Assembly: GCA_028696075.1 (NCBI GenBank)
Contig: JAQVHS010000015.1
Span: 1 to 36,222 of the forward strand
Source of the DNA: Candidatus Gastranaerophilales bacterium
GTDB lineage: Bacteria > Cyanobacteriota > Vampirovibrionia > Gastranaerophilales > JAILCC01
Reading direction: 5' to 3'
Length of the DNA: 36,222 bases
The notes beneath the pieces were generated by a model. That model saw nothing but the letters and a program-made list of their open reading frames with translations, did not search any database and was not told the origin of the DNA. The position numbers and the translations under genes were made by a program. Shown here piece after piece: positions 13,263 through 27,862 of this stretch; the stretch's first letter is position 1; the number at the start of each line of letters is the position of its first letter.

Positions 13263-15155
13263 TTAAATAGTTGTAATTAATGACGGTGCAATAGTTATGA
13301 ACTTTCTGACGAGTTCTTTATCCCATTGAATTCCTGAACCGACCCTTAGGATTTCTACAGCTTTTTCAATAGGTAACCCTTTTCTGTAAGGTCTGTCGCT
13401 GATAAGAGCATGGAAGGTGTCTGCCACGGCAACAATCCTTGCTGCCAAAGGTATTTCTTCACCTTTCAAGTTGGAAGGATAGCCTGAACCGTCCCAATGT
13501 TCATGGTGATGTTTTACTATGGGGATTAAATCTCTTAACGCTTCAACAGGGGCGAGTACTTTTTCAGCACCGATAACAGGATGCTGCCGCATTATTTCCC
13601 ATTCGTCGTCTTCAAGCTTGCCTTGTCTGCCTAAAACATTTTCAGGAATGCCGATTTTGCCTACATCATGCAATAAAGCGCCTAACTTAATTCTTTCGAC
13701 TTCTTCATCCGGTAAATTTAATGCCCTTGCCAACGCTTCGGAATACCTTGAAACAGATTGTGAGTGACCTTTTGTATAAGTATCTTTAGCATCAATTGCG
13801 CCTGCAAGTGATGTTACAACGTCTAAAATATGATTATTCGAATTTGTAGAGTCATTATGGAACTTATTAACAAGTTCTTCTTCAAAATTTAAACCTAATT
13901 GGCTGTGTCTTTTTGCAATAACAGCCGCAAAAGAGTCTAACGCTGCATCATTCCAGAAATTTATATCCTGAGCATTAACAACTACCGATATTCCGTTCTT
14001 GTAGCCTTTGTTTTTCGAGATTATCATTGCTTGTTCAGCCAGGATTAATAATTTTTCCTGTTCTTTGGCACAAGTCGGATAAGTAGCAAGACCGACACTA
14101 ACCTTTAAAGTACCAACGTCATCAACAAGACAGCAGGATAAACTGTAGTTTAAATACTCTGTGATGTAACTTGCTTCTGAATTATCCGTATCAGGCAGAA
14201 TAAGCGCTATTTCATCACCGCCGTATCTTCCTGCTACGTCTACACTGCGTATATTTTGTTTGATTTTCTCTGATACAAGTTTGATAATTTCATCGCCCTT
14301 GGCATGCCCGAATTCTCTGTTAATTTGTGAAATGTTATTAACGTCAAAAATTACTACAGAAACAGGTTTGCCGGTTTCTTGCACTTTTTTAAGTTCAAGA
14401 GATAGTTTTTCCTGGAATGAACGATGGGTAGCAAGCCCTGTTAAGATATCAACATCACTTGTTAAGCTTGTTTTTTCCGCTAATTGTGAATTAACAATAT
14501 GCAGTGTTAAATAATCTACCAAAACCTGCAATAAATCGCTGCAAGGCTGTGATAACTCACTGTAGCCTAAAATAAGCACGCCATGACAATTACCTTGATA
14601 TATCATAGGTAAAATAAGAGTCTTGGAGTCAGATAAATAATCGATATTCAGGAAGGTATTATTCGGAATAGTTTGGGGTATTTTATCATTGAAAGCTTTT
14701 ACAATAGGATTATGCAGCTGGTTTAACAATACCCTTGAATTATAGCAATTTGCTATTCTGTCAAGCAATTTAATGTTAATACAATTCGATTGTGAGTTTA
14801 AAATACCTAATGCACTGAATGACAAACCCATTCTTGAAACTATAAGATTGTGGAGCAAATAATAAACATCTTCGGATGATTGTTTGGATTTCGCAATAGA
14901 CGAAAAATCATACAATACATCCATAGGATCCATTGTATTTTGAATGGAGAAAAGACTCTGGGAAGAATTTTTTTGGTTAAAGCCGCCGAAAAGCCTGTTA
15001 GATGTCTTCTTGGGGGAGTACACCTGCTTCTGCACAGACCTTATCGGGCTGGCATGCCCTAATCTTGTTGCTTCCTTAGTCTTATTGTTATTCGCTCCAA
15101 AAGTTAATTCGGGATTATCCTGACTATAATTCAACCGACACTTCCTTACTACCAT
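13263..15155 (-). CDS. GAF-GGDEF-HD-GYP cyclic-di-GMP enzyme
   Basis: Predicted to make and/or degrade c-di-GMP. In 630 residues (start at 15155), a disordered basic N-terminus with ELTFGA (16-21) leads to a probable GAF sensor (about 80-228). A GGDEF domain (about 232-390) has GGDEI at 312-316 and the inhibitory-site RxxD (RSVD, 303-306) five residues before it. An HD-GYP domain (about 445-620) has HD at 496-497 and HHEHWDGSGYP (550-560). Both active sites look intact, though the GGDEF motif ends in Ile. A longer GTG start at 15200 is possible. I prefer the ATG at 15155, because a 15-codon leader frame ends in TGA overlapping it. No transmembrane helix is visible, so it is cytosolic. Confidence 0.88.
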   Translation of the reverse strand: MVVRKCRLNYSQDNPELTFGANNNKTKEATRLGHASPIRSVQKQVYSPKKTSNRLFGGFNQKNSSQSLFSIQNTMDPMDVLYDFSSIAKSKQSSEDVYYLLHNLIVSRMGLSFSALGILNSQSNCINIKLLDRIANCYNSRVLLNQLHNPIVKAFNDKIPQTIPNNTFLNIDYLSDSKTLILPMIYQGNCHGVLILGYSELSQPCSDLLQVLVDYLTLHIVNSQLAEKTSLTSDVDILTGLATHRSFQEKLSLELKKVQETGKPVSVVIFDVNNISQINREFGHAKGDEIIKLVSEKIKQNIRSVDVAGRYGGDEIALILPDTDNSEASYITEYLNYSLSCCLVDDVGTLKVSVGLATYPTCAKEQEKLLILAEQAMIISKNKGYKNGISVVVNAQDINFWNDAALDSFAAVIAKRHSQLGLNFEEELVNKFHNDSTNSNNHILDVVTSLAGAIDAKDTYTKGHSQSVSRYSEALARALNLPDEEVERIKLGALLHDVGKIGIPENVLGRQGKLEDDEWEIMRQHPVIGAEKVLAPVEALRDLIPIVKHHHEHWDGSGYPSNLKGEEIPLAARIVAVADTFHALISDRPYRKGLPIEKAVEILRVGSGIQWDKELVRKFITIAPSLITTI

Positions 15156-15202
15156 CACCTGATAAATAGAGAAAAACAAATCATGCTCAAAAATTGACAC
15201 AT
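15155..15202 (-). CDS. possible 15-residue leader peptide upstream of GGDEF/HD-GYP
   Basis: ATG at 15202 opens MCQFLSMICFSLFIR and closes with TGA whose A is the first base of the ATG at 15155 (TGATG coupling). The ATG lies at about +3 of the transcription start predicted from the extended -10 at 15211-15219. It may be a coupling or attenuation leader, or chance. The alternative is that translation starts at GTG 15200 in the long frame. Confidence 0.3.
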   Translation of the reverse strand: MCQFLSMICFSLFIR

Positions 15203-15210
15203 GTTCCCAT

Positions 15211-15219
15211 ATTTTAGCA
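15211..15219 (-). promoter_or_regulatory. extended -10 promoter of GGDEF/HD-GYP gene
   Basis: The minus strand reads TGC then TAAAAT (15219-15211). The predicted start is 15204, two bases before an ATG and four before a GTG. It is the same motif as before tsaE. Confidence 0.5.
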
Positions 15220-15270
15220 GTTTTTTAAAGTTTTGTAACTATTTTTTTTTAAAGATACTCTGTTCAAAGT

Positions 15271-15300
15271 AAAAGAAGACCGGTGAAAAGGTCTCCTTTT
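15271..15300 (-). terminator. intrinsic terminator, probably of the Lys/Ala-rich protein gene
   Basis: Stem AAAAGGAGACC / GGTCTTCTTTT, 11 bp with one G-T wobble and an 8-base loop. The T-rich arm serves as the U-tract. It lies 21 bases after the stop of the minus-strand gene at 15322. Confidence 0.6.
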
Positions 15301-15321
15301 AGCTAATTAGTTTTTTATTAA

Positions 15322-15780
15322 CTATATATAGTCAAAACCGCGTTCTTCAGCATCACGTTTAGACAATAATTTAGTTGTAGCAATAGTAGCAGCAGCAACA
15401 GCAGCAGCTGTAACGGCAACACCGACTACAAACGGCTTTTTAGCAACATTGTAAACAGCTTTAGCCGAGGACTTGGTTTTAGTTCCAATGGTTTCAAAGA
15501 AGCCTACTAATTTTTTAGGCGTATGTTCTTGGATATATTTACCCGTTTTAATAGCAGCACCTTCAACTCTAGCTTTAACTTTAGCTGCTACATCTTTAAC
15601 CGCCTTCACGCCATTGCTCATTTTTTGTCTAAGGGTAGTTTTGGCTGCACCCTCTGCACCAATATTTACCACATCTGCAGCAGCTTTTGGTGCCTTAGGT
15701 TTAGGGGTAGAGCTAGCCTTAGGTTTAACTGCTCTTTTAGCGCCCTCAAATGAAACTGAAGAATTGTTGTTTACTTGCAT
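15322..15780 (-). CDS. Lys/Ala/Pro-rich C-terminally anchored membrane protein, unknown
   Basis: 152 residues, not recognised. Near the N-terminus is VSFEGA (9-14), then a Lys/Pro/Ala-rich histone-H1-like stretch (15-35), amphipathic Lys/Ala helices (45-112), and one Ala/Val transmembrane helix (about 116-139). The tail KRDAEERGFDYI is short, so the basic part may face the cytoplasm, where it could touch nucleic acid or membrane (inference). I use the second ATG (15780), because AAAGGAG lies eight bases before it. A consensus-like promoter and a terminator make it a single-gene, probably well-expressed unit. It shares the N-terminal F-G motif with other proteins of this window. Confidence 0.7.
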   Translation of the reverse strand: MQVNNNSSVSFEGAKRAVKPKASSTPKPKAPKAAADVVNIGAEGAAKTTLRQKMSNGVKAVKDVAAKVKARVEGAAIKTGKYIQEHTPKKLVGFFETIGTKTKSSAKAVYNVAKKPFVVGVAVTAAAVAAATIATTKLLSKRDAEERGFDYI

Positions 15781-15804
15781 AATAAATATCTCCTTTAGAA
15801 AATT

Positions 15805-15833
15805 ATTATATAACATGAAATTCGTACTTACAA
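15805..15833 (-). promoter_or_regulatory. sigma70-type promoter of the Lys/Ala-rich protein gene
   Basis: TTGTAA (15833-15828), 17-base spacer, perfect TATAAT (15810-15805). The predicted start is 15798, giving a short leader that contains the Shine-Dalgarno. This is one of the best promoters in the window. Confidence 0.7.
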
Positions 15834-15892
15834 GTGCTTTAACAAATATAAAAAAATAATTTGCTATTATTGACGAAAACTTTTAACAATTC

Positions 15893-16543
15893 TTAATAAA
15901 TGCTCATTTTTTTTTGATGGATTGGCGGAGGCTGCAAATAAAGAGGCTTCAAATCCCACCAATTAACAAGTTTATGCCTGTTAATTTTTTCTTCGGTTAT
16001 TTCAAGCAAAATTCTTCCAAAATCCGCTTCAGACGTTTCAAAATTAATATATTCAATTCCTTCTTTGATAAAAATCCCACCTAAAGAACTGTCTGATATA
16101 ACTTTACAATTTTTAGATTTGATAAGAGATAAAAGCCCGGAAAGTTCAATCATTGATACTGTGTTGTCATTACTTTGCTTGACATAAGCCATATTTTTCC
16201 TGGCGTCTAATGCACATATAGAAGGCTCTGAAATAATTCTGCTTAAAATTTCCGCTGAATTTATTGGAACACAAGAAATATCAAGAGTCTGCGCTATTGT
16301 TTTTGCGATACTTACTCCTACTCTAATTCCTGTAAAGCTCCCCGGTCCTATATTTGTAGCAACCAAATTAATGTCTTTTAATGTAAGATTATTTTCTTTA
16401 AGCAGTTTTACGATTGTATCAAGCAAATATGCACTGTGGTAGTTTTTTTCATCGCTTAGTATTGTTTTTGTTGTTATATCGTCATTTATTTTAAGGCCTA
16501 TACAGGTTTTGTGAAGGCTCGTATCAAACGCCAGTATATTCAT
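15893..16543 (-). CDS. tsaB: tRNA threonylcarbamoyladenosine biosynthesis protein TsaB
   Basis: Scaffold partner of TsaD in making t6A37 of ANN-decoding tRNAs. At 216 residues it has the ASKHA-type N-terminus (ILAFDTSLHKTCIGL) and GPGSFTGIRVGV (near 67-78), the diagnostic TsaB segment. The C-terminal half is divergent, as is common. It overlaps tsaE by 21 bases, so the two are coupled. TsaD and TsaC are not in the window. Confidence 0.92.
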   Translation of the reverse strand: MNILAFDTSLHKTCIGLKINDDITTKTILSDEKNYHSAYLLDTIVKLLKENNLTLKDINLVATNIGPGSFTGIRVGVSIAKTIAQTLDISCVPINSAEILSRIISEPSICALDARKNMAYVKQSNDNTVSMIELSGLLSLIKSKNCKVISDSSLGGIFIKEGIEYINFETSEADFGRILLEITEEKINRHKLVNWWDLKPLYLQPPPIHQKKMSIY

Positions 16544-17024
16544 AGTTCTTGAACCTTTCTTTCAAAGCCTTTATAAGGGCTGCCTCTTCGCAGGTCAATT
16601 CCAAAGCCCTTGTGTCTTCATCAATGTATTTTATGTTAAGATTCAACCTTTTTGGGGGTAGTCTGTTATCGGAAAATTCTGCCCATTCAACAATCGTAAG
16701 AGTATCAGGCTGCTCACAGTAAGTTTCTATTTCATCAATCATTGAGCTCACTCCCTCTTTTTCAAGACGGTAGAAATCAAAGTGATAAAGAGGGATTTTA
16801 CCCGAGTGATATTCATTAAGGATAACAAAGCTCGGGCTTGTAACTTTTTCGACGACTCCCGTGCGTTTTGCAATAAATCTTGTCAGTGCTGTTTTTCCGC
16901 TCCCTATATCACCATAAAGACAAATCAGTCCGCCATTATTTTCGATATAAAAATCAGCTAAAATTTCTGCGATTTTTTGCGTATCTTTAAGGTTGTTTGA
17001 AGTTATTTTTATTGAGTTAGCCAT
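16524..17024 (-). CDS. tsaE: tRNA threonylcarbamoyladenosine biosynthesis ATPase TsaE
   Basis: ATPase that resets the TsaB-TsaD complex in t6A synthesis. In 166 residues the Walker A GDIGSGKTAL (near 39-48), TSPSFVILNEY (switch) and VEWAEF (Walker B-like/W motif) all fit. No normal Shine-Dalgarno spacing exists. Instead an extended -10 ends exactly six bases before the ATG, so the gene can be read from a leaderless transcript as well as from the upstream asmA-like gene 24 bases away. TsaB follows by overlap. Confidence 0.94.
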   Translation of the reverse strand: MANSIKITSNNLKDTQKIAEILADFYIENNGGLICLYGDIGSGKTALTRFIAKRTGVVEKVTSPSFVILNEYHSGKIPLYHFDFYRLEKEGVSSMIDEIETYCEQPDTLTIVEWAEFSDNRLPPKRLNLNIKYIDEDTRALELTCEEAALIKALKERFKNYEYTGV

Positions 17025-17030
17025 ACCTTG

Positions 17031-17039
17031 ATTTTAGCA
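17031..17039 (-). promoter_or_regulatory. extended -10 promoter for a leaderless tsaE transcript
   Basis: The minus strand reads TGC then TAAAAT (17039-17031), then CAAGGT, then ATG at 17024. The predicted transcription start is the A of the start codon. It lies in the 24-base gap after the asmA-like stop. Confidence 0.55.
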
Positions 17040-17048
17040 TGAAAAATT

Positions 17049-20000
17049 TTATTCTTCCTTGGGCTTTAAGAATAATTTGCCGAAGTTCTGCAGAGTTTTG
17101 ACAGTTTCATTTTCTTGCAGCTGTTTAATTTGGGGGATTTCTTTAACTTGTTCAATAATTTCTTCTTTTGTTTTAGGGATTTTTATTTGCAATTGCGAAG
17201 ACAATGACTCTTCGGTCTTTTCCTGTGCTTCTTCCGTATTAAGCCACTGGAAAGACTTAACGGAAGACGGGTTCATGGTATTGCCGTCTATAACCACCTT
17301 GAAGGTTTTAGAGCTTGCTTTTGGGGTAAGCTGCGGAATGTTATTTATAGTGTTATCGGGAGCAACAGCGTTAAATGCTTTTAGCATGCCGGAGAGTACC
17401 GAACCGAATTTAGGAATATAATTTAAGATTTTATCCAGACTCATATCTGCCAAAGGCCCGAGAAGGCTTGTCAGTTTTTGGTTTAAACGTCCGTATATTT
17501 TTATATCCCCGTTGCTGTTAAGCATATTAAGCTTGCCGTCAAGCAATAATGCCATATATTCACCGCTTGATGTCACAGGCTTAAGGTGGACATATCCGTT
17601 GTTAAAGGACAAAGCCCCTTCCATAACTGCAAATTTACCTGTATTATACGGTGCAACGGTATTAACGACGGAATAAATATTTGATTTTAAAAAACTGTTA
17701 TTGAGAATGTTGCCCGCTTTAAGGTAGAAGTCAAGACGCCCTAAACTGCCCATCTGCCCGTCCTTTACCTTGAACGAAGCATTTCCGCTCATTGTCTTCA
17801 ACTGTTTTTCCATAGTATCACCCGACATGGCAATTTTTGCAGTAAAATCCAATGTGCCTTGCAGCTGGTCTTTTATTGCAATCAGAGCTGTAACTGCTTT
17901 ATTAGCGTTCATATCGCTTCCGTTTAAATCCGCCGTCATATGAAGGTTTTTAAGATTATACTTAATCATGCCTGAAACATTACCGTCAAAAGCGTTCGCT
18001 TTCATAGGGCTTATCGTAAGCAAATCGTTATGAAGCTTAAAATCGGAAGTAATGTTAGAAGCTTCTATCGTGCCTGTTTTAAACTTGGCAATTTTCGCAC
18101 TGCCGTTTAAAATAGTTACAGGTATCATAGGAGCGTTAGAAACAACCGTTCCGGCAGGTGCTTGCGGGAATTTGGTTGTTGCATAGATAATTTTGTCCAA
18201 ATCAATATCAGATGATACTAATTTCATATTGTGAACCACAAAAGGCATTGTGATTTTTGATGAAGCACTAAAGTCGATATCCATAGGGTTGCCGTTAACA
18301 TTCAAACCTAATATCTCACCTGTAATAGACGAAGAATTCAGATTTATATTGATTATTTGGGCTCTTATTAGATAGTCGGGAATGCTGACGCTTGAAAGGT
18401 TTATATTTCCTCTCAAAGCCGGTGAAGCCATATTGCCGTCAATGTTAATATTCGCTTTCAGATTTACGTTTGACTTTGGCAGCGCATCGTTTGTTATGCT
18501 TAATTCTTGCGGAATTGTTAATTTTATACCTTTAAGTTTGTTGCCGTTTATATGACCGTTTAACTTTATGACTTCATTTGCTGTTTTTAGAGAAGCAAAA
18601 TCATTGCCCAAAATTTCTGCAGCCATGTATAAACCGGCATCCGTTATATTAATATTAGACCCTTCTATTAAGGTATCTATATTTAATATGCTGTCTTTTT
18701 GGGCGAGTTTTTTGATGGTAGCTACCGTAAAATGATTTTGGGCATCTGCCATGATTTGTGCTTTTACGTTTATTTTTTTATCGTTACCGCTTATTTTCAC
18801 CAGCAAAGGAAGAGAGCCTTTGGCTGTTACGTAGGGGTAAAGGCTCTTATCTACAAATGCTTTAATATCCAAAGAGTTAATTTTGCCTTTTGCGCTTAAG
18901 TTTATATCAGGTTTTGTACTGTATTCTTTAATAATACCCTCAAAGGCTAAATTTGAGTTATTTAAAGAGAGTGTAGATGGTTTAACGGTTATTACTTTAG
19001 GTGTAATGCTTACCGCAACTGCCGGCAGAACAGCGGTCATGTTAAGGTCATTTAATATGGCTTTGGAATCATTTAAAGCTATATCCCCTGAAAAATCCTT
19101 ACCGTTTGTTTTTATATCGGCATTAAGGGATTTATTGATAAATGTAATGTTGTTCAGTTTATCTTTTGCTTTTAAATTTGCAAGCTGCATATTAACAGCA
19201 GGCTTAATATCCTCCAGCTTGCCTTTGATAACTATTGATAAATCCAGTATACCGCTTTGGACTTCATAGGATTTTCTTAAGTCTGCTGGCATAAGTGTAT
19301 TGGCAAGCTGCGCGATTTTAAGGTTTTTGGTCGTAACAGAAATATCCGCTACAGCATCAGAAGTGATTTTGCCTGTTATATTAAAAGGAGTTCCGTTAAT
19401 CAATGCAGTGGTTTTATTTATTTTAAACTCGTTGCCTGACATATCTACTAAAGAGTTGATAGCAGTTACATTAAGCCCCAGCAGGTTATATCTGATTTCG
19501 CCGTTTACTACCTCAAATTTGCCTTTCGACTCAAATTTTTTAAGGTTTGTTTTTAAATCAAAGTCAGAAGTTATATAACCTTTTGTTTGAATTTTGTTCA
19601 AATCGTTAGGAATATTCAAAGAGCTGAAAACAGCTATAGCGATTTTTTGAAGATTATTAATGCTTATTTTTTCTGTCAAAACATTCAATGCAATATCAGG
19701 GTGTTTGGAATTATTTATAACCCCTTTTATAGCCGCTTTTTCGTTATCACATAATGCAAGCAAGGCATCAAAAGATATCTTTTCATTTTTAAATACGGCA
19801 TGAATATTGCTTTGAGGGAGTGTCTTCTTATCTATAACAAAGCTTATATTATCCGCATCAAATTTGCCGTTAATTCTTAAATTATCTTTCTTTTGAGTTA
19901 TCTTAAGGTCAGATTTAATATTGGCTTTGAAGTCATATTTGATAAACTCGTCTACAAAATCAAAATATATTGCTTCTGCTTCTTTTTTAACCTCCTGATT

Positions 20001-20672
20001 AGTCATATCCGGCAGAAATGTATCAATATTTAGGTCATAAACCATATTTTCTTTGTCATTGGCAACTACTTTGCCTGTCAGCGCTATGCGGGCATGCTTA
20101 TTCAAAATTGTTTTATCAATAAGTATTTTATCGTTCATTAGTTTAATATTGTTTTTTGTTTTAAGGTCAGTAAAGCTGACTTCGCCGCCTTGAATCATAA
20201 CCTTTGGCATTTTATCGGAAATTTTGAACGGTATTGCTACAGGTTCTTGATTAGCGGCAGTATTTTGCATATTATCGGCAAAATATTTTTCGATTTTGAG
20301 CCTGCCGTTATCATACACTTCAATATTAAATTGAGGGTTGTTTACAGTTACATCGCTTATTTGAACAGTTTTGAAAATAAGAGGGAGCAAATTTATTTTC
20401 ACTTCCGCCTTTTGGGTATTAAGCAGCTGCGTATTGTCGGGGTAGGAAACTTTTAAATCATCAATTCTAAGCCCTGCTTTTAAATTAGGGGTTGTGATGA
20501 TTTTTATATTTGACAAATCAACATTTAACTTTGCATTTTCAAATGCTGCCCTTTTAATATCATTTGTATAGTGATTCAGATTAATAGCATTTGGAATAAC
20601 AAATAAAAATGCCAGATACGCCAAAGCAATGATAGCAGCTAATACAATTATTGTGATTTTTAAAGCCTTCAT
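17049..20672 (-). CDS. large AsmA-like (AsmA/TamB superfamily) envelope protein
   Basis: Family members bridge inner and outer membranes and influence lipid transport or outer-membrane assembly; this role is by family. 1207 residues: an N-terminal transmembrane anchor (about 4-24), then a long repetitive beta-rich periplasmic part dominated by Asn, Lys, Leu and Ile. The C-terminal AsmA region has SFKVKDGQMGSLGRLDF and a DGKLN...GDIKIYGR element, and a charged coiled tail follows. I start at 20672, because GGGAG sits nine bases before that ATG; the frame extends nine codons further up. It heads an operon with tsaE and tsaB and is evidence for a double-membrane envelope. Confidence 0.83.
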   Translation of the reverse strand: MKALKITIIVLAAIIALAYLAFLFVIPNAINLNHYTNDIKRAAFENAKLNVDLSNIKIITTPNLKAGLRIDDLKVSYPDNTQLLNTQKAEVKINLLPLIFKTVQISDVTVNNPQFNIEVYDNGRLKIEKYFADNMQNTAANQEPVAIPFKISDKMPKVMIQGGEVSFTDLKTKNNIKLMNDKILIDKTILNKHARIALTGKVVANDKENMVYDLNIDTFLPDMTNQEVKKEAEAIYFDFVDEFIKYDFKANIKSDLKITQKKDNLRINGKFDADNISFVIDKKTLPQSNIHAVFKNEKISFDALLALCDNEKAAIKGVINNSKHPDIALNVLTEKISINNLQKIAIAVFSSLNIPNDLNKIQTKGYITSDFDLKTNLKKFESKGKFEVVNGEIRYNLLGLNVTAINSLVDMSGNEFKINKTTALINGTPFNITGKITSDAVADISVTTKNLKIAQLANTLMPADLRKSYEVQSGILDLSIVIKGKLEDIKPAVNMQLANLKAKDKLNNITFINKSLNADIKTNGKDFSGDIALNDSKAILNDLNMTAVLPAVAVSITPKVITVKPSTLSLNNSNLAFEGIIKEYSTKPDINLSAKGKINSLDIKAFVDKSLYPYVTAKGSLPLLVKISGNDKKINVKAQIMADAQNHFTVATIKKLAQKDSILNIDTLIEGSNINITDAGLYMAAEILGNDFASLKTANEVIKLNGHINGNKLKGIKLTIPQELSITNDALPKSNVNLKANINIDGNMASPALRGNINLSSVSIPDYLIRAQIININLNSSSITGEILGLNVNGNPMDIDFSASSKITMPFVVHNMKLVSSDIDLDKIIYATTKFPQAPAGTVVSNAPMIPVTILNGSAKIAKFKTGTIEASNITSDFKLHNDLLTISPMKANAFDGNVSGMIKYNLKNLHMTADLNGSDMNANKAVTALIAIKDQLQGTLDFTAKIAMSGDTMEKQLKTMSGNASFKVKDGQMGSLGRLDFYLKAGNILNNSFLKSNIYSVVNTVAPYNTGKFAVMEGALSFNNGYVHLKPVTSSGEYMALLLDGKLNMLNSNGDIKIYGRLNQKLTSLLGPLADMSLDKILNYIPKFGSVLSGMLKAFNAVAPDNTINNIPQLTPKASSKTFKVVIDGNTMNPSSVKSFQWLNTEEAQEKTEESLSSQLQIKIPKTKEEIIEQVKEIPQIKQLQENETVKTLQNFGKLFLKPKEE

Positions 20673-20706
20673 GTATAAAACTCCCTGTCTGTTCTTCATG
20701 TATTTA

Positions 20707-20734
20707 ATTTTAGTATTTCATATAATAATTGCAA
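20707..20734 (-). promoter_or_regulatory. promoter of the asmA-like operon
   Basis: TTGCAA (20734-20729), 16-base spacer, TAAAAT (20712-20707). The predicted start is near 20700, 28 bases before the chosen ATG. Confidence 0.5.
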
Positions 20735-20843
20735 TATAACAGGTGGGTATAACCTTCAAAAAATATTTAACATTAACTTGACCTTGATGTATGCTTTTGA
20801 TATTTTGTATGTATTGGAAATCAAATAACAATAAAACGTGTGC

Positions 20844-20886
20844 GTGTGGCACTCTGCCAAAAAATATTGGTGTGTGGCACTCTGCC
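20844..20886 (+). repeat. 15-bp direct repeat upstream of tRNA-Leu
   Basis: GTGTGGCACTCTGCC occurs twice (20844-20858 and 20872-20886), 28 bases apart. Its first seven bases occur a third time at 20899-20905, inside the 5' end of tRNA-Leu, at nearly the same period. This looks like tandem copying of the tRNA 5' flank. Confidence 0.6.
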
Positions 20887-20894
20887 GAAGATAC

Positions 20895-20976
<82 letters not shown>

Positions 20977-20982
20977 ATCTTG

Positions 20983-21013
20983 AAAAAGGATACTCTTTAG
21001 AGTGTCCTTTTTT
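20983..21013 (+). terminator. intrinsic terminator after tRNA-Leu
   Basis: A 13-bp stem, AAAAAGGATACTC / GAGTGTCCTTTTT with one T-G wobble and a TTTA loop, ends in a T-run. It lies seven bases after the tRNA. Confidence 0.8.
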
Positions 21014-21047
21014 GTTATATAGAAAGGTTAAAAAGAGATTCAAGTTT

Positions 21048-21116
21048 ATGGGAAAATTCCTACCTCATATAACCGTAATAATTGCTATTGGGGGTTTTAT
21101 TTTTATCCGGCGGTAA
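21048..21116 (+). CDS. possible 22-residue membrane peptide
   Basis: ATG at 21048 opens MGKFLPHITVIIAIGGFIFIRR then TAA: one hydrophobic span capped by basic residues. It is 34 bases after the tRNA-Leu terminator and seven bases from the end of the minus-strand PHP gene. AAGAGA lies about 11 bases upstream, a weak ribosome site. No promoter is evident. It could be chance. Confidence 0.3.
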   Translation: MGKFLPHITVIIAIGGFIFIRR

Positions 21117-21123
21117 TAAAGCA

Positions 21124-22890
21124 TTATTCCGTTAAAAAAATGTTTTTTCCGTGGGTATCAAGACTACCCGATGGCAGCAAAGAATGCCTTTTTGCCGCTT
21201 TGTCTATAAAATCAAGCAAATCATCTTCAACTTTAACATAATTACCTGCTCCGCCTTGAAAATACGGGTAATTTTTTTCATAAAAAAGTGTTTTATCCCC
21301 TGCGTTTTCTTTGAAGAATTTAAAAAGATTTTCTATAGTTTCCTTTATCAGGCTATCTGTAGGCTCTTTAGTATAATCGTACTTATGTCTTAAAGCAGGA
21401 TGAGCTATTGCGGGTATGATATCATTGTCATGCTTTAAAATTTCTAATATTTTGCCAAATTCAAAAATCAAAGAAGAATCTTTTATACCTGTTTGATATA
21501 CTTGATTTTCTACTGATTGCAAACTCTCTTTAACACTGTCATTGAGAGGCTTAAATAAATCATCCACTTCTTTAAAGAGTCCTTTGTAGTTTTCCGCATT
21601 AATCTTCATGTCTTTGCCGTGTAACCGTTGAAGCAGTTCCATTTTTATTGAAGCAATATATTTTTCCCAATAAGGAACAGGGGCGTTTGGCATCAAATTT
21701 TTATGTACAAAAGTAACATGAGAAGCTGTAGATGGGAAATCCAACGTTTGGGTTGCAAGTTTTTTGCCTAAAAATTCTTTTAAAGGTTCATTATATTTCA
21801 CAAGTTCATGATAGATTTTGCGAAATTGCAAGTAATCTTTAACAGGATTTATTATGGTATTAAGCCCTTCTTTTATACACCAGCTTGTAGTTTTGGCTTC
21901 GTCCAAATTATAATCGATTTCTTTAAAATCCCATGCGTCTTTAAACTTATCCTTCATTTTAGCAATAATGTGCCTTGCCATATTGATAGTATTTTTTTGC
22001 TTCTGTTCAACCATTGATGCAAAATCGCCTTTAAAAGGATTAACACAGTACGCCAGAAGATGGGTGGAAAAATTCTCATTAACGTTTGGCAGATTGGAAT
22101 GGTAAGTAGAAAGTTCTGCACCCAAAACCAACCTCAAATTCTTATATTTTTCAGGCGCAGCAGCAATGATTTTCAGCGCATCAATACAACCTTTTGTGGT
22201 GTCATGGTCTGTTATTGCGATGGTGAAAGGAGCATTTGAAACTAAGGAAGGGTTAGAAGCAGCCACTTTATCGGCATAAGCCGCCGCATCGTCAAGCAGT
22301 TTCTGTACAGACATAGCGCCGTCTGAGGCCTGAGTGTGCATGTGCAAATTTGCCCTATAGAGAAGATTATTTATGTTATCAAAATTTTCGCTGTCCTGTA
22401 CCCATTTTTGTGCTCTTTGACCTTGTTTATAGCAGGCGGGGTTCCCATCTAAACCTTTTACTACGGCGGTAAGCTCCTGTTTGCCGATAATCGAGCGCAA
22501 AACAGCATAATCCTCAACCTTTAACCCGGCTTGAGCAGATATTTCCTGCATAAGGCTTTTTCTGTAAGTAATGTCATCGGCAAAATTAGCCATTTGCTCT
22601 TCAAAAACTTTTTTGACAGAGCTTTTTAAAACAACTTCTTTAGCGTTGTTAATAATAGCCCCTGCTGCCTCAGAGGCCTTGCTAATATTTCTTTTGTGAA
22701 TAATTACCCCTGCTGTAATAATGGCAAGCCCTGCAGCACCTGTTAAAAGATAATTTTTCAATTTTTTGTTTTCCTGCACTTCCTGTTTGGGGATATATGA
22801 AGCAGGGGCAACGTTAACCGGAGCGTAATTCCGACTTACGGCAGGATATGAATTAAATTGTTTGAAAATAACAGGATTAATTTGTGTCAT
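21124..22890 (-). CDS. membrane-anchored PHP-domain phosphoesterase
   Basis: 588 residues. An N-terminal polar stretch (with NPVIFKQ at 6-11), one transmembrane helix (about 47-64) and basic residues precede a PHP metal-hydrolase domain. Metal motifs in order: HMHTQASD (His183, His185, Asp190), TDHD (Asp228, His229, Asp230), GAE (Glu259), a His near 277, AHP in the later half, and LDTHG (Asp578, His580) at the very end. The domain is long, with a helical insertion of roughly 200 residues in the middle. Substrate unknown; PHP relatives cleave phosphate esters. Its ATG overlaps the stop of the cupin-like gene (ATGA), so the two are coupled and probably act together. Confidence 0.75.
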   Translation of the reverse strand: MTQINPVIFKQFNSYPAVSRNYAPVNVAPASYIPKQEVQENKKLKNYLLTGAAGLAIITAGVIIHKRNISKASEAAGAIINNAKEVVLKSSVKKVFEEQMANFADDITYRKSLMQEISAQAGLKVEDYAVLRSIIGKQELTAVVKGLDGNPACYKQGQRAQKWVQDSENFDNINNLLYRANLHMHTQASDGAMSVQKLLDDAAAYADKVAASNPSLVSNAPFTIAITDHDTTKGCIDALKIIAAAPEKYKNLRLVLGAELSTYHSNLPNVNENFSTHLLAYCVNPFKGDFASMVEQKQKNTINMARHIIAKMKDKFKDAWDFKEIDYNLDEAKTTSWCIKEGLNTIINPVKDYLQFRKIYHELVKYNEPLKEFLGKKLATQTLDFPSTASHVTFVHKNLMPNAPVPYWEKYIASIKMELLQRLHGKDMKINAENYKGLFKEVDDLFKPLNDSVKESLQSVENQVYQTGIKDSSLIFEFGKILEILKHDNDIIPAIAHPALRHKYDYTKEPTDSLIKETIENLFKFFKENAGDKTLFYEKNYPYFQGGAGNYVKVEDDLLDFIDKAAKRHSLLPSGSLDTHGKNIFLTE

Positions 22891-24527
22891 TGGTTACCCT
22901 TATTTATTATGTTTGGAAACAAAAGGCGAACAAGGAAGAGAGGAGGGCTTAACATAAAGTCAGGCTCTTTTAGGATGCTTGAATTGTTTAGCATATGTTT
23001 TGCCTTTGTCTTTAATTCTTCGTTAAACGGTTCAACTATGTTTTTAAATTTAAGACCGTAGTGAAAAGAAGATGGCGCCTGCGTACATAAATGTTCGTAT
23101 TTCCCTTTTATAGCCACAATACCATGCTCAAGACCGGATGGGACTACTGCACAATCACCTTTTTTTAATACTTTGATTGATTTTTGCCCGTTAACTATCG
23201 CGCACATAGCTGCTTCACCTTGTGTTACCACGTATACTTCCGTCATTTTTTCATTCAAGTTACTGGCATTTTGATGCTTATGAATCTCTTCTTCCGGTCT
23301 GATTATATTAAAATCTTTGACTGTAGTATCAAACTCGTCATTTCCGTCATAAACTCTGGATACCCCGTTAATAAAAGTTCCCTTTCTTGTCCATGCCGTA
23401 GAATTAGTAATCCATTCCGTGGGCATTGAATTATGCTGGTTAATTTTGTCTTTATGCAAATATACAGTTACGTCGTTATTTTCATTGGCAAGACCGGAGA
23501 TATCAAATCCTGATTTGGTTGTACCAAGCCATACCGCTAATATTTCATTCTTAACATCACCATATATTTGAACCTTATCCCATAACTCTTTTTGTAATTC
23601 ATCTATTGTATAAAAAGAATTCCATACAATTTTATCATTTTGGCGCTTTAAAATTTCGCGAGCTAAAAGTTTATCGTAAACCCAATCAGGACAACTGCAA
23701 AAATATTCACGCTTTACCTCACCTTCATTCTGTAGAGTGAATATATTTCTCCTTTTATATTGTGAGTATATTTGAACAATTCGGTTAGCCGATTTTTCAT
23801 CTATGTTTAATGAAGTTAAATGATTTTTAAGCTTATCGGTTTCCGTATTAAATCTAAAAGAAGTATAACCCTCGCTGTCAACCGGATAAATGAAGCCACA
23901 ATCTTCTAATTGTTTTACATAAGGTATAAAGACTTTTTTATGTACTTTATCTGCAAATATTTTTTTATTCTTATCCGTCAAAAGCTCAAAAAATTCTCTA
24001 TGAGTTGTTTCAAAAGGTGACATCTTAGAATACCAGTAGGGCATTTTACCGGTAATAACAACCATAGGGTTACCTTCAATAACATTCACTTTTGCATATG
24101 TTTTAGCGGGGATTAAAATAGCACCGGGTTCGTTGAGATACATTTCATTGCGATTGGGAGAGTTGGCGCTCAATCTGCAATCAGATTGAGCTATTACTTG
24201 TGTTTCTTTATCGTAGTAAGTTGTGCTTCTGAGATAATTTTTAGCGGCTTCGCCATAATATAATACTGTATCGGTTTCATTATCAACATCATAACCGCCA
24301 TCGTAACGGGGTTGAAGTAATTTATCTTCACAGCCTAAAATAAACGCACTTTTAATATCAGTGGCAGTAGCACCAAAGGATATAAGATTATAATAATTAC
24401 AGGGGCAAGCGCTCAAAGAGCTGCCTTGTAATCTATCCCTTGAAAAATTTTTTTTATCGGAACGATTGGCTAAACTGCTACCCGTAGTACGGATAAGATT
24501 GTATGGTTTTACTTGTGATACATTCAT
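22887..24527 (-). CDS. protein with C-terminal cupin domain, otherwise unknown
   Basis: 546 residues, not recognised overall. The N-terminal 60 residues look disordered and include LISFGA (48-53). A segment near 130-165 (PGAILIPAKTYAKV, MVVITGKMPYW) may be a first, degenerate beta barrel. The C-terminal cupin is clearer: His416, His418, Glu430 with EVYVVTQG, then GDCAVVPSGLEHG with His468 fit the 3-His/1-Glu metal pattern with a lengthened first spacing. Two Cys-x-Cys pairs (ACPC, CSCP) are visible. A strong promoter lies 28 bases upstream; the PHP gene follows by 4-base overlap. It may act on a sugar or sugar phosphate, but this is not shown. Confidence 0.65.
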   Translation of the reverse strand: MNVSQVKPYNLIRTTGSSLANRSDKKNFSRDRLQGSSLSACPCNYYNLISFGATATDIKSAFILGCEDKLLQPRYDGGYDVDNETDTVLYYGEAAKNYLRSTTYYDKETQVIAQSDCRLSANSPNRNEMYLNEPGAILIPAKTYAKVNVIEGNPMVVITGKMPYWYSKMSPFETTHREFFELLTDKNKKIFADKVHKKVFIPYVKQLEDCGFIYPVDSEGYTSFRFNTETDKLKNHLTSLNIDEKSANRIVQIYSQYKRRNIFTLQNEGEVKREYFCSCPDWVYDKLLAREILKRQNDKIVWNSFYTIDELQKELWDKVQIYGDVKNEILAVWLGTTKSGFDISGLANENNDVTVYLHKDKINQHNSMPTEWITNSTAWTRKGTFINGVSRVYDGNDEFDTTVKDFNIIRPEEEIHKHQNASNLNEKMTEVYVVTQGEAAMCAIVNGQKSIKVLKKGDCAVVPSGLEHGIVAIKGKYEHLCTQAPSSFHYGLKFKNIVEPFNEELKTKAKHMLNNSSILKEPDFMLSPPLFLVRLLFPNIINKGNQ

Positions 24528-24561
24528 GTGGAAACTTCATCGGGTGAAATAATTAATATTA

Positions 24562-24590
24562 ATTCTAGCAAACTATCCGGTTTGTGACAA
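24562..24590 (-). promoter_or_regulatory. strong promoter of the cupin-PHP operon
   Basis: TTGTCA (24590-24585), 17-base spacer ending in TGC, then TAGAAT (24567-24562): a near-consensus -35 plus an extended -10. The predicted start is 24555, with a 28-base leader lacking an obvious Shine-Dalgarno. Confidence 0.7.
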
Positions 24591-24629
24591 TAAAATATAT
24601 ACATTTATTAAGTAAATTATGGCAGCTTT

Positions 24630-25748
24630 TTAGTTTAGCAGTTCCTCTGCAATCTTCCTGTATTCTTTAGCGCCGTCAAAGTCTTTAATATCATCGCTTA
24701 ATTTAGCCAGTGCCATATAAATCTTAGGTTCACTTTGATTGTACTTGAGCGCTTCAAACAGACTGTCAAAAGCCTTATCAAATTTTCGCTCCAGGCTCAA
24801 TTCTTCACAATAGGCTATGCAAGCGTCAATAATCATAGTTACTATAGTTTGCTCTGTTTTCTCATCAATAGGGTCATAGTAAAATTCCCTCAAAAAATCG
24901 ATACTTTCAAGATATTTTTTTTGTTCCAAATAACATTTCACCATCAAAAACTTGGCAGGTGAATGAAAAGTATTTTCTTTTATCACCTCGTTACATTTTT
25001 CAAGCGCTTCGTCGTACTTTTTTTCTAATATAAAAATTTCGGCTGTTTTTGTTAAGAGTTCTTGTTTTTCTTCAGGGTTAGATTCGATAAGCAGTCCAAG
25101 AATAGATTTTGCTTCTTCGAACCTTTCTGTTACGGCATAAAAATGCGCCAGTTTTTTAATAAACTCTTTTTCTATAGTGCCTAAAAGCAACAATTTTTCA
25201 AGCAATTCAACGGCTTTGGGGATATTGTTTTGTTTTTCGCTGATTAAGGCAAGCTGCTGGGCATATTGAGATTTTTCTTCCATAGCAAGAAGCTTCTCGT
25301 ACATTGAAGCGGATTTTGTAAATTCCCCGTTTTTCAAAAGTGTATCGGCTAATTGTTCCATCAAAGGCTGATTGCCGGGTTCTATTTTCAGCAAACCTTC
25401 AAGGATGGTTACTTTGCTTTCAAGGTCTGTATCAGCATCCCGGAGCGAAAATAAAAGTTCTGTTGCCTGTTTATCAAGCGGCATTAACTCTTTAAGGCTT
25501 AAAAGTGTATCAAAGGCATATAAATATCTAAAACTACCTTTTAGGCTCTGCGCAAGTTTCAAATAAGCGGGAAGATAGGTTTTGTCCAATTCTATTATAT
25601 TTTGGAAAATTTCTGCAGCATTTTTATACTGTTTATTTTGCAAATATAAATTACCTAAGATATCCAGTTTTAAGATATTTTCAGGCTGATTTGCCACGGC
25701 TTTTTGTGCAAGCTTTATTTCTCTGTTGGTGAAAAACTGTTTAAACAT
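24630..25748 (-). CDS. TPR-repeat protein
   Basis: 372 residues built almost wholly of tetratricopeptide-like helix pairs, e.g. ILGNLYLQNKQYKNAAEIFQNIIELD near 30-56, and repeated units to the end. No signal peptide or membrane helix is visible, so a cytosolic scaffold for protein-protein contacts is likely. The partner is unknown. There is no Shine-Dalgarno; TAAAAT ends six bases before the ATG, so a leaderless message is predicted. It lies 51 bases downstream of ruvA and could also be read from that operon. Confidence 0.82.
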   Translation of the reverse strand: MFKQFFTNREIKLAQKAVANQPENILKLDILGNLYLQNKQYKNAAEIFQNIIELDKTYLPAYLKLAQSLKGSFRYLYAFDTLLSLKELMPLDKQATELLFSLRDADTDLESKVTILEGLLKIEPGNQPLMEQLADTLLKNGEFTKSASMYEKLLAMEEKSQYAQQLALISEKQNNIPKAVELLEKLLLLGTIEKEFIKKLAHFYAVTERFEEAKSILGLLIESNPEEKQELLTKTAEIFILEKKYDEALEKCNEVIKENTFHSPAKFLMVKCYLEQKKYLESIDFLREFYYDPIDEKTEQTIVTMIIDACIAYCEELSLERKFDKAFDSLFEALKYNQSEPKIYMALAKLSDDIKDFDGAKEYRKIAEELLN

Positions 25749-25754
25749 AGTTGT

Positions 25755-25760
25755 ATTTTA
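25755..25760 (-). promoter_or_regulatory. -10 element for a leaderless TPR-gene transcript
   Basis: The minus strand reads TAAAAT (25760-25755), then ACAACT, then ATG at 25748. The spacing is six bases, as before tsaE and the nucleotidase. It lacks the TGC extension, and no clear -35 is seen. Confidence 0.4.
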
Positions 25761-25799
25761 AGCTATTAAAATATTTCATACATCTATTGATTAGCGTAT

Positions 25800-26438
25800 T
25801 TACGATTTAGAAATTATTTCAAGCGCTATAGTAAGGATTTCTTGAGTATCATTCTCATTTGATACTTTGGTTTTCGCTTCATTCAAGCCTTTTGATATTT
25901 CTTCTTTTGAATAACCTAACGATAACAGCACTGCTTCTGCCTCGCTAAATCCTTGTGAAATAAGGGCATAATTTTCAAAGCTTTCTTTTTTATCATTGAA
26001 GTTGAAATCCACCATTTCTTTATAATTAACCATTTTGTCTTTTAGTTCTAAAATTAACCTTTTAGCAAGTTTTGGACCTATGCCTTTTATTTGTGTAAGG
26101 AGTTTCACATCTTCTTGAAGGACAGAACTAACAATTTCTTGCAATGATAACTCTAAAATAAGAAGAGCAACTTTTGCCCCGACTCCTGAAACGGTTTGAA
26201 GCATTGAAAACATATCTCTTTGCTCTCTTGAGGCAAAGCCGTAAAGAGTCATCGCATCTTCTTTGTGGCTTAGATAAGTGTATATAGTTACTTCGCTTGT
26301 AATATCAGGCAGTTCTTTAAGCGTTTTTTTATTTACAAAAATGCTGTAGCCTATGTTGTTCACTTCCAGTACCAAATGACAGCCCGCAAGACTATTTTCG
26401 ATTTTGGCTATAAGAGTTCCTTTTAAATAGCTGAACAT
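25800..26438 (-). CDS. ruvA: Holliday junction branch migration protein RuvA
   Basis: Binds Holliday junctions and loads the RuvB motor. 212 residues with the three expected domains: an N-terminal OB fold (FSYLKGTLIAKIENSLAGCHLVLEV), two helix-hairpin-helix motifs (TVSGVGAKVALLIL, and KGIGPKLAKRLILELK), and a C-terminal RuvB-contact domain (EAEAVLLSLGYSKEEI). It overlaps bioB by 16 bases, so its start depends on bioB translation. RuvB and RuvC are not in the window. Confidence 0.95.
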   Translation of the reverse strand: MFSYLKGTLIAKIENSLAGCHLVLEVNNIGYSIFVNKKTLKELPDITSEVTIYTYLSHKEDAMTLYGFASREQRDMFSMLQTVSGVGAKVALLILELSLQEIVSSVLQEDVKLLTQIKGIGPKLAKRLILELKDKMVNYKEMVDFNFNDKKESFENYALISQGFSEAEAVLLSLGYSKEEISKGLNEAKTKVSNENDTQEILTIALEIISKS

Positions 26439-27355
26439 ATTTTTTTCCCCAGTTCTTTTAATGTAATCAAATCATCTTGAGGTTTTATGCCTGTAGTTGT
26501 AAGCATATTACCTATTAAAACAGCGTTTATTCCTGCTTTTATCCCGAGTCTTCTGTTTTCTTCCGATAGCCTGTCCATCCTTCCGCCTGCGTAGCGCAAA
26601 ACTATCTTGGGCATAATCAGCCTGAATGTTGCTATAGTTCTTATTATATCTTCTTCGGTAATTTTATCCCCGTAATGTTCAAGCGGCGTATGCCTTATAG
26701 GTGTAAGAATATTAATCGGCGCGCATTCAACCCCTAAATCTCTTATTTCAATAGCGGCTTCTATACGCTGCTCGAGGCTTTCCCCCATACCTATAATAAC
26801 TCCGCAGCAAACTTCCATACCGTATTTTTGGACAAGTTTGACTGTGTTTATTCGGTCTTGATAAGAGTGTGTCGTGCAGATATTGGCATAATTCGACTCT
26901 GACGTATTTATATTGTGGTGAAACCTTGTTAACCCTGCTTCTTTAAGCGCTTTTGCCTGGGCTTCGTTTATTATCCCTATGGATGCACAGCTTGTCAGCC
27001 CTTCTATTTTATTGATTTCTTTTATCATCGTGAGAAGTTTATCAAAATCTTTGTCGGGTGATTTGCCCGAAGTTACTATTGCAAACCTTGTCGCGCCACT
27101 CTCTCTTGCATGTTTTGCTGCCGCAATAACCTCTTCAATACTTACCAACGGATGTGTATGGATATCGGTCAGATAGTGTGAACTTTGGGAGCAGTATTTG
27201 CAGTTTTCTTCACATCTACCCGTTTTTGCACTTATTAGAGAACACAGTTCTATCCTGCTGCCAAAATTTTCTATTGTACATTTTTCCGCCTTGTCAAGAA
27301 GTTCAGCCAAAGGCATATTATAGTACTTTAAATATTTTTTTATTTCGTTTACCAT
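26423..27355 (-). CDS. bioB: biotin synthase
   Basis: Radical-SAM enzyme inserting sulfur into dethiobiotin. 310 residues; the [4Fe-4S] cysteines are Cys48, Cys52 and Cys55 (CEENCKYCSQS). Further landmarks are TSGKSPDKD, HHNINTSESNY, GVIIGMGES and the RYAGGR element near the end that carries the auxiliary-cluster arginine. There is no ordinary Shine-Dalgarno distance: AAGGT abuts the ATG, and TTAAAT ends six bases before it, so the message may be leaderless. Other bio genes are absent nearby. Partner in cofactor supply to birA at the other end of the window. Confidence 0.95.
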   Translation of the reverse strand: MVNEIKKYLKYYNMPLAELLDKAEKCTIENFGSRIELCSLISAKTGRCEENCKYCSQSSHYLTDIHTHPLVSIEEVIAAAKHARESGATRFAIVTSGKSPDKDFDKLLTMIKEINKIEGLTSCASIGIINEAQAKALKEAGLTRFHHNINTSESNYANICTTHSYQDRINTVKLVQKYGMEVCCGVIIGMGESLEQRIEAAIEIRDLGVECAPINILTPIRHTPLEHYGDKITEEDIIRTIATFRLIMPKIVLRYAGGRMDRLSEENRRLGIKAGINAVLIGNMLTTTGIKPQDDLITLKELGKKICSAI

Positions 27356-27469
27356 ACCTTAATTTAACTAATAAAATGATTATTTTACAAGGTTTTATAA
27401 TTATCCCGGGCAATTTTTTTTGTCAAAAATTTTTTATATATACAACAGGTAATAAACGAGGTATAAGGC

Positions 27470-27862
27470 ATGGTCAACTCAGTTCAATCATTAAACAATA
27501 TTAACTCTCAAAGAATAGCATTTAACGGTGAAGCAGGATACGCTAAGACTAGTCCGTATCCGAATGATTCTTACGAAAAAAAATCAGGCAGTGGCAAAAC
27601 ATTATTATTGCTGGCATCATTGGTAGCAGCTTTTGCCTTTAGGAAAAATATAGCAAAGGTTATTCCTAATTGTGTTAAAGAATTTACGACAAAGTGGATA
27701 AAAAATCCTGTGAAGAATTTTATTTCGGATCATGAAGCATTGAGAAAAGTTGTAAATGGCTCAAAAAATAAATATAACGGATTTATAGATAAGTTACGGG
27801 TTGCTTCTAAAGATATTTTAGGAAGTGGCGGTCAACGTCAACCTAATTTACCCGGATTTTAG
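27470..27862 (+). CDS. small single-pass membrane protein with N-terminal F-x-G motif, unknown
   Basis: 130 residues, not recognised. A polar N-terminus of about 43 residues contains RIAFNG (15-20). A short hydrophobic helix (about 44-57, TLLLLASLVAAFAF) is followed by a basic, Lys/Asn-rich C-terminal part with two or three helices and a Pro/Gly end. This architecture matches the Lys/Ala-rich protein at 15322 in kind, though not in sequence. GAGG eight to nine bases upstream supports the ATG. It is divergent from bioB and followed by an acetyltransferase-like gene with its own -10. Confidence 0.65.
   Translation: MVNSVQSLNNINSQRIAFNGEAGYAKTSPYPNDSYEKKSGSGKTLLLLASLVAAFAFRKNIAKVIPNCVKEFTTKWIKNPVKNFISDHEALRKVVNGSKNKYNGFIDKLRVASKDILGSGGQRQPNLPGF

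What the first reader, a model, noticed from the sequence alone, without database searches (positions are those of the whole stretch)
13263..27862. Shared short N-terminal F-G motif on unrelated proteins
Four proteins of different kinds have, within their first 20-55 residues, a hydrophobic-(S/T/A)-F-(G/E/N)-(A/G) motif in a polar, disordered context: VSFEGA (gene 15322-15780), RIAFNG (27470-27862), LISFGA (22887-24527) and ELTFGA (13263-15155). A fifth, NPVIFKQ (21124-22890), is weaker. Downstream parts are unrelated: small membrane proteins, a cupin-like protein, a c-di-GMP enzyme and a PHP hydrolase. A motif kept while the cargo changes suggests a lineage-specific sorting, anchoring or adaptor-binding tag. 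I recall similar starts in Gastranaerophilales proteins, but no search was run. The motif is short, so chance is a real alternative.
Basis: partly seen in the sequence, partly recalled or inferred. Interest (0 to 1): 0.68.

Follow-up and report, generated by a model that had tools for sequence, protein, structure and literature searches.

The report
Order-specific disordered N-terminal protein tag
Gut bacteria of the order Gastranaerophilales put a short, floppy start sequence (M-x-I/V-x-x-I/V, a polar spacer of variable length, then a conserved F-x-G or F-x-R) on many unrelated proteins; it is kept by selection although it lies outside the folded protein, so it is probably an address or docking label whose reader is still unknown.

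Summary
All five quoted stretches exist, but the ELTFGA of the GGDEF-HD protein is not kept even in 79%-identical orthologues and is probably chance; NPVIFKQ is weak. The motif as written is only 2.5-fold enriched at other N-termini (10 seen, 3.9 expected). The real signature has two parts: M-x-[IV]-x-x-[IV], a polar linker of variable length, then x-[STN]-F-x-[GASR]. It is 5.5-fold enriched in three Gastranaerophilales genomes (29 against 5.3) and close to background in four outgroup genomes (7 against 2.3). Strongest evidence: a second, divergent GH77 enzyme keeps the F in 79 of 79 orthologues across a linker of varying length, while the housekeeping GH77 shows the signature in 0 of 28; AlphaFold gives pLDDT 92 overall but below 50 for residues 1-12. 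A second family (F and G invariant in 12 of 12) behaves alike. So it is a conserved, disordered short linear motif on enzymes and small membrane proteins. The receptor is unproven. Leading candidate: the order's flagellar-type export machinery, kept even without flagellin, with a stand-alone FlhA-C-like protein found in 26 of 27 order genomes and no outgroup. Intracellular anchoring is a near-equal rival.

The parts
15739..15780 (-). Tag of P0001 (MQVNNNSSVSFEGA), gene 15322-15780; fits the two-part signature
   Evidence: translation; composite hit; no homologue in 39 relatives
27470..27529 (+). Tag of P0002 (MVNSVQSLNNINSQRIAFNG), gene 27470-27862; I/V at residue 5 rather than 3
   Evidence: translation; F kept at the same place in L130 and L131
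27563..27586 (+). Second element of P0002, NDSYEKKS (D-[ST]-[FY]), between tag and membrane segment
   Evidence: D-S-[FY] kept in both homologues; D-T-F-x-K-[ST] also best kept in tagged GalM
27599..27640 (+). Probable membrane segment of P0002 (TLLLLASLVAAFAF)
   Evidence: read from the translation and kept in homologues
24510..24527 (-). Start element of P0003 (MNVSQV), gene 22887-24527
   Evidence: translation
24369..24386 (-). F element of P0003 (LISFGA, residues 48-53)
   Evidence: translation; no homologue in 29 relatives
22858..22890 (-). Weak instance, P0005 (MTQINPVIFKQ), PHP-related protein 21124-22890
   Evidence: translation; PHP relatives carry related N-termini
15093..15110 (-). 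ELTFGA of the GGDEF-HD protein 13263-15155: judged a chance match, not part of the tag set
   Evidence: absent from orthologues with 77-79% identity

Best explanation
A fraction of Gastranaerophilales proteins starts with a two-part short linear motif: M-x-[IV]-x-x-[IV], a polar linker, then x-[STN]-F-x-[GASR] with the F somewhere between residue 10 and 60. The segment is disordered and outside the fold of its cargo, yet its I/V anchors and its F are conserved, so it most likely works as a docking or targeting tag read by a dedicated receptor. Shown: enrichment, order restriction, conservation, predicted disorder. Inferred: receptor and destination. The confidence given is for a conserved docking or targeting tag, not for that particular reader.
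For: Enrichment: composite signature 17, 6 and 6 hits against 3.1, 1.3 and 0.95 in shuffles; strict pattern 41 against 15.2 in the order and 5 against 5.9 in outgroups. Residue 3 is I/V in 52, 38 and 50% of proteins chosen by the F motif alone, against 14-17% of all proteins. Conservation: F in 79/79 second-copy GH77 orthologues, I/V at residue 3 in 76/79, housekeeping GH77 0/28; F12 invariant in 38 sequences; F17 and G19 invariant in a 12-member family; orthologue pairs keep F-x-[GAS] while the linker changes. Disorder: pLDDT below 50 for residues 1-12 of an enzyme with mean 92.4 and for residues 1-15 of the small family. Address logic: tagged and untagged copies of GalM and GH77 in the same genomes. 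Candidate reader: flagellin-less genomes keep FlhA and FlhB; stand-alone FlhA-C-like protein in 26/27 order genomes and 0/19 class outgroups, 1-81 bases before the tagged GH77 in 63 of 64 loci.
Against: No receptor, binding or localisation data. Outgroups with the export apparatus lack the tag enrichment. Some bearers have membrane helices (7 of 26) or a lipobox-like stretch, odd for export substrates. In a 51-member membrane-protein family only 33 have an F before the membrane segment, so the F can be lost. In the own genome the FlhA-C-like gene is not next to the tagged GH77. Composite counts are slightly raised in outgroups too (7 against 2.3).
Confidence: 0.7

Rival explanations
1. The tag is an intracellular anchoring or scaffold signal: it docks cytosolic enzymes and small membrane proteins onto one hub, membrane site or condensate inside the cell, with no export.
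For: Most bearers are soluble with cytosol-type domains (AAA, CheR-type, dGTPase-type HD, GH77, GalM); others have a membrane segment soon after the tag. Outgroups have the export apparatus but not the tag.
Against: No hub identified; the extreme N-terminal position is not needed for a scaffold motif; flagellin-less genomes keep an export apparatus that must serve something.
Confidence: 0.33
2. The tag is a type III (flagellar-type) export signal, read by FlhA2/FlhB and the stand-alone FlhA-C-like protein, and tagged proteins leave the cytoplasm.
For: Extreme N-terminal, disordered, polar with small hydrophobic anchors; two-part logic resembles early flagellar subunits, which have a hydrophobic N-terminal signal plus a docking motif (PMC8983047). 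Export set kept in flagellin-less genomes. Order-exclusive FlhA-C-like protein upstream of a tagged enzyme.
Against: Spacing of anchors to F in GH77 is far shorter than in early subunits, and F-x-x-x-hydrophobic is not met there. Rod, hook and flagellin proteins of the own genome that were read do not carry the tag. Link to FlhA-C-like is association only.
Confidence: 0.35
3. It is a translation-start effect: AT-rich codons favoured near the start give M-K/Q/N-I-N type beginnings and polar N-termini, and the F motif is chance on top.
For: The M-x-[IV] start is the most widely kept part in the 51-member family (46 of 51), and proteins of the order have I/V at residue 3 more often than outgroup proteins.
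Against: F is invariant at protein level while its distance from the start varies; shuffles that keep N-terminal composition give 5.5-fold fewer composites; outgroup G093 with similar GC (0.34) shows no excess in the strict pattern.
Confidence: 0.08
4. All instances are chance matches of a short motif.
For: ELTFGA is one; about a third of strict-pattern hits are expected by chance (15 of 41).
Against: Order-wide excess and 79/79 and 12/12 conservation.
Confidence: 0.04

Closest known systems
Export signals of early flagellar rod and hook subunits (N-terminal hydrophobic signal plus gate recognition motif; PMC8983047)
   Same: Two elements at the N-terminus of unchaperoned proteins: small hydrophobic residues near residue 2-6, then an F-containing motif after a disordered spacer
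   Different: F-to-anchor spacing is 6-14 residues in GH77 against about 30 in FlgD; F-x-x-x-hydrophobic form not general; cargo is enzymes and membrane proteins; export not shown
Short linear motifs (docking and sorting motifs as a class)
   Same: Conserved core in a disordered, otherwise variable tail, shared by unrelated proteins
   Different: Restricted to one bacterial order and to protein starts; receptor unknown; no NCBIfam or Pfam family shown for 53 bearers is a tag family
N-terminal encapsulation peptides of bacterial microcompartments (from general knowledge)
   Same: N-terminal extension joined by a linker to varied enzymes
   Different: Those are amphipathic helices; no helix is predicted here

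Membership tests
Short linear motif (docking or sorting tag) | Lies in a disordered segment outside the folded domain | tested here: met
   pLDDT below 50 for residues 1-12 and 1-15; two families only
Short linear motif (docking or sorting tag) | Core residues conserved while flanks and spacing vary | tested here: met
   F in 79/79 GH77 orthologues with varying linker; 12/12 in the small family
Short linear motif (docking or sorting tag) | Shared by unrelated proteins more often than chance | tested here: met
   29 against 5.3
Short linear motif (docking or sorting tag) | Binds a defined receptor | not testable with these tools
   no binding data and no complex prediction
Early flagellar (type III) export signal | Small hydrophobic residues at the extreme N-terminus | tested here: met
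   I/V at residue 3 in 38-52% of the F set against 14-17%; 76/79 in GH77
Early flagellar (type III) export signal | Gate recognition motif of F-x-x-x-hydrophobic form | tested here: not met
   GH77 mostly has F-x-R-R-P; window instances have K, A or A four residues after F; only the small family fits, F-[QN]-G-[KR]-[VILT]. The form of the motif is from general knowledge
Early flagellar (type III) export signal | Long spacing between hydrophobic signal and docking motif | tested here: not met
   6-14 residues in GH77 against residues 2-5 and 36-40 in FlgD, where shortening stalls export
Early flagellar (type III) export signal | Export depends on the FlhA/FlhB gate | not testable with these tools
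   gate genes are present; dependence needs an experiment
Sec or lipoprotein signal peptide | Hydrophobic stretch within about the first 35 residues | tested here: not met
   0 of 26 composite bearers against 242 of 1186 others; the polar filter contributes to this
Microcompartment encapsulation peptide | Amphipathic N-terminal helix | tested here: not met
   no helix in the tag in either model

The most novel reading that the evidence does not exclude
Gastranaerophilales run an undescribed protein-addressing system: an N-terminal two-part tag on roughly 2-5% of proteins, read by a flagellar-type export apparatus that in many members has lost its filament and has gained a stand-alone FlhA-C-like docking protein, which sends second copies of sugar- and nucleotide-acting enzymes to or through the cell envelope.
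Probability: 0.25. Interest if true: 0.85.

Novelty: new variant of a known kind. Interest (0 to 1): 0.62.

Why it matters
If the tag is an address, it gives a sequence handle on where dozens of unannotated proteins go in a little-cultured order of animal-gut bacteria. It would also bear on why flagellin-less members keep part of a flagellar export apparatus, an incompleteness that earlier papers read as ongoing genome reduction or as lack of motility (PMC3787301 and PMC5877343).

Tried and rejected
Unguided EM motif discovery on N-termini found only low-complexity patterns and was dropped. The second element D-[ST]-F-x-K is not enriched at N-termini on its own; it is supported only inside families (P0002, tagged GalM). 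ELTFGA was rejected by orthologues. Flagellar proteins as bearers: FlgE, flagellin, FlgB and FlgC read in the own genome lack the signature; FliD starts MSISFSG, a start I recall as common in FliD. A genome-contig scan with P0005 found no relative. Pfam and NCBIfam name cargo, not a tag. Paper searches on type III secretion or N-terminal features in this group found no description of such a tag in the open-access library searched. Gene starts come from a simple Shine-Dalgarno rule, not a trained gene finder.

Full report
What was checked. The window is contig 15 (36 kb) of a 1.84 Mb, 21-contig genome, 99.6% complete. Titles of records holding relatives of an order-wide family name the order as Candidatus Gastranaerophilales. 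All five quoted stretches were confirmed by translation. Pfam sees GGDEF and HD in P0004 and a cupin end in P0003, and nothing in P0001, P0002 or P0005.

Is it more than chance? Genes were called in 40 stretches of the own genome (about 45% with the window), 20 of G018 and 14 of G030 (same order, another family), and stretches of four outgroup genomes of the class. A broader pattern, fixed before the second own sample and G018 were read, gives 14/307 in G018 against 4.3 in shuffles (0 of 300 reach it) and 11 of 1332 internal windows. Pooled over the order it gives 41 against 15.2 (window and first sample included); pooled over the outgroups, 5 against 5.9. Reading the hits showed that the convincing bearers begin M-x-[IV]-x-x-[IV]. 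The composite of that start, a polar linker and the F motif gives 17, 6 and 6 hits against 3.1, 1.3 and 0.95. In the set chosen by the F motif alone, residue 3 is I/V about three times more often than in all proteins, so the second element was not put in by the selection. Limits: the composite was shaped on these samples, and outgroups are weakly raised (7 against 2.3).

Orthologues of the five genes. P0004 has relatives in 77 of 79 order genomes, and its ELTFGA is absent even from 77-79% identical ones. P0002 has two homologues in other genera of its family with hydrophobic-x-F at the same place, then D-[ST]-[FY], then the membrane segment. P0001 and P0003 have no homologue in 39 and 29 relatives. 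P0005 belongs to a PHP group with several members in this genome whose N-termini often carry h-[ST]-F-[KSR]-[NSGA].

The strong cases lie outside the window. A second, divergent GH77 has F in 79/79 complete orthologues, I/V at residue 3 in 76 and I/V/M at residue 6 in 75; with secure starts the F sits between residues 12 and 20. F12 is invariant and R14 over 90% among 38 sequences of 43-75% identity. The housekeeping GH77 of these genomes shows the signature in 0/28. A 12-member small family has F17 and G19 invariant. In a 51-member membrane-protein family the M-x-[IV] start is kept in 46 and an F before the membrane segment in 33. GalM comes as tagged (398-411 aa) and untagged copies in G018, G030 and G024; D-T-F-x-K-[ST] is the best kept part of the tagged ones. 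Orthologue pairs of G018 and G030 keep F-x-[GAS] while the linker changes. Neighbouring housekeeping families (Skp-like, uridine phosphorylase, FlhA-C-like) show the signature in none of 42, 58 and 64.

Structure. AlphaFold2 on the tagged GH77 gives mean pLDDT 92.4, but residues 1-12 are below 50; Foldseek matches the body to amylomaltases at E about 1e-17. The small family gives a folded domain from about residue 21, with residues 1-15 below 50. A conserved segment that does not fold with its own protein is what a linear docking motif looks like.

Who carries it. Bearers with known domains are a CDC48-like AAA ATPase, two CheR-type methyltransferases, GalM, GH77, a dGTPase-type HD protein, an exonuclease, PHP proteins and an HNH protein; most others have no family. 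Of 26 composite bearers 7 have a predicted membrane helix, none at the very N-terminus (the polar filter contributes).

Who could read it. FHIPEP (FlhA-type) proteins occur in every order genome and FlhB in every order genome tested. The seven f2-family genomes tested have no flagellin, yet keep FlhA and FlhB, and G018 has a FliE, FliF, unknown, FliH, FlhA run. A stand-alone protein with only the C-terminal part of FlhA is near full-length in 26 of 27 order genomes and in none of 19 class outgroups. In 63 of the 64 loci that hold it, it ends 1-81 bases before the tagged GH77; in the own genome the two genes are apart. [quoted passage not shown] This makes the export machinery the best single candidate reader, but the link is association only. 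The tag fails two features of the known early-subunit signals, spacing and F-x-x-x-hydrophobic form, and outgroups with the apparatus lack the enrichment.

Verdict. The finding points to something real: an order-specific, two-part, disordered N-terminal tag, seen in the window on P0001, P0002 and P0003, weakly on P0005, and not on P0004. That it is a docking or targeting tag: about 0.7. Within that, flagellar-type export about 0.35 and intracellular anchoring about 0.33. Estimated load, by extrapolation, is 2-5% of proteins (composite excess as lower bound, eye count as upper).

Noticed in passing
L256:2477-3955 (+); own genome L021:4264-5745 (+): A stand-alone protein that matches only the C-terminal (321-655) part of the FHIPEP/FlhA model; near full-length in 26 of 27 order genomes and none of 19 class outgroups.
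   Followed up: partly
L148:11158-17136 (+); own genome L147:13096 onward: FliE, FliF, unknown, FliH, FlhA run in genomes without flagellin; the own genome has both a flagellar FlhA (L150:8452-10554) and this second set.
   Followed up: partly
L148:2560-3819, L149:830-1969, L052:8640-9536: A repeated family starting MG(M/L)(A/S)ASQ(A/T)R(F/Y)L..LTAR(K/Q)TNVE(Y/F)(E/Q)GQQ, one copy near the second FlhA and one about 7 kb from the FlhA-C-like gene; function unknown.
   Followed up: no
window 15132-15134 (-): Probable true TTG start of the GGDEF-HD gene, after AAGGAAG and matching orthologues.
   Followed up: yes
window 21124-22890 (-): PHP-related protein with several diverged relatives in the same genome and a membrane segment before the PHP part.
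   Followed up: partly
L220, L221, L217, L225: Tagged GalM carries a second element D-T-F-x-K-[STN] after the F element, better kept than the F element itself; a D-[ST]-[FY] element is also in P0002 and its homologues.
   Followed up: partly
window 11098-13260 (+): A 720-aa protein mostly of N, Q, S, T, K and A with no Pfam hit; a similar start is at L024:4286-6565.
   Followed up: no
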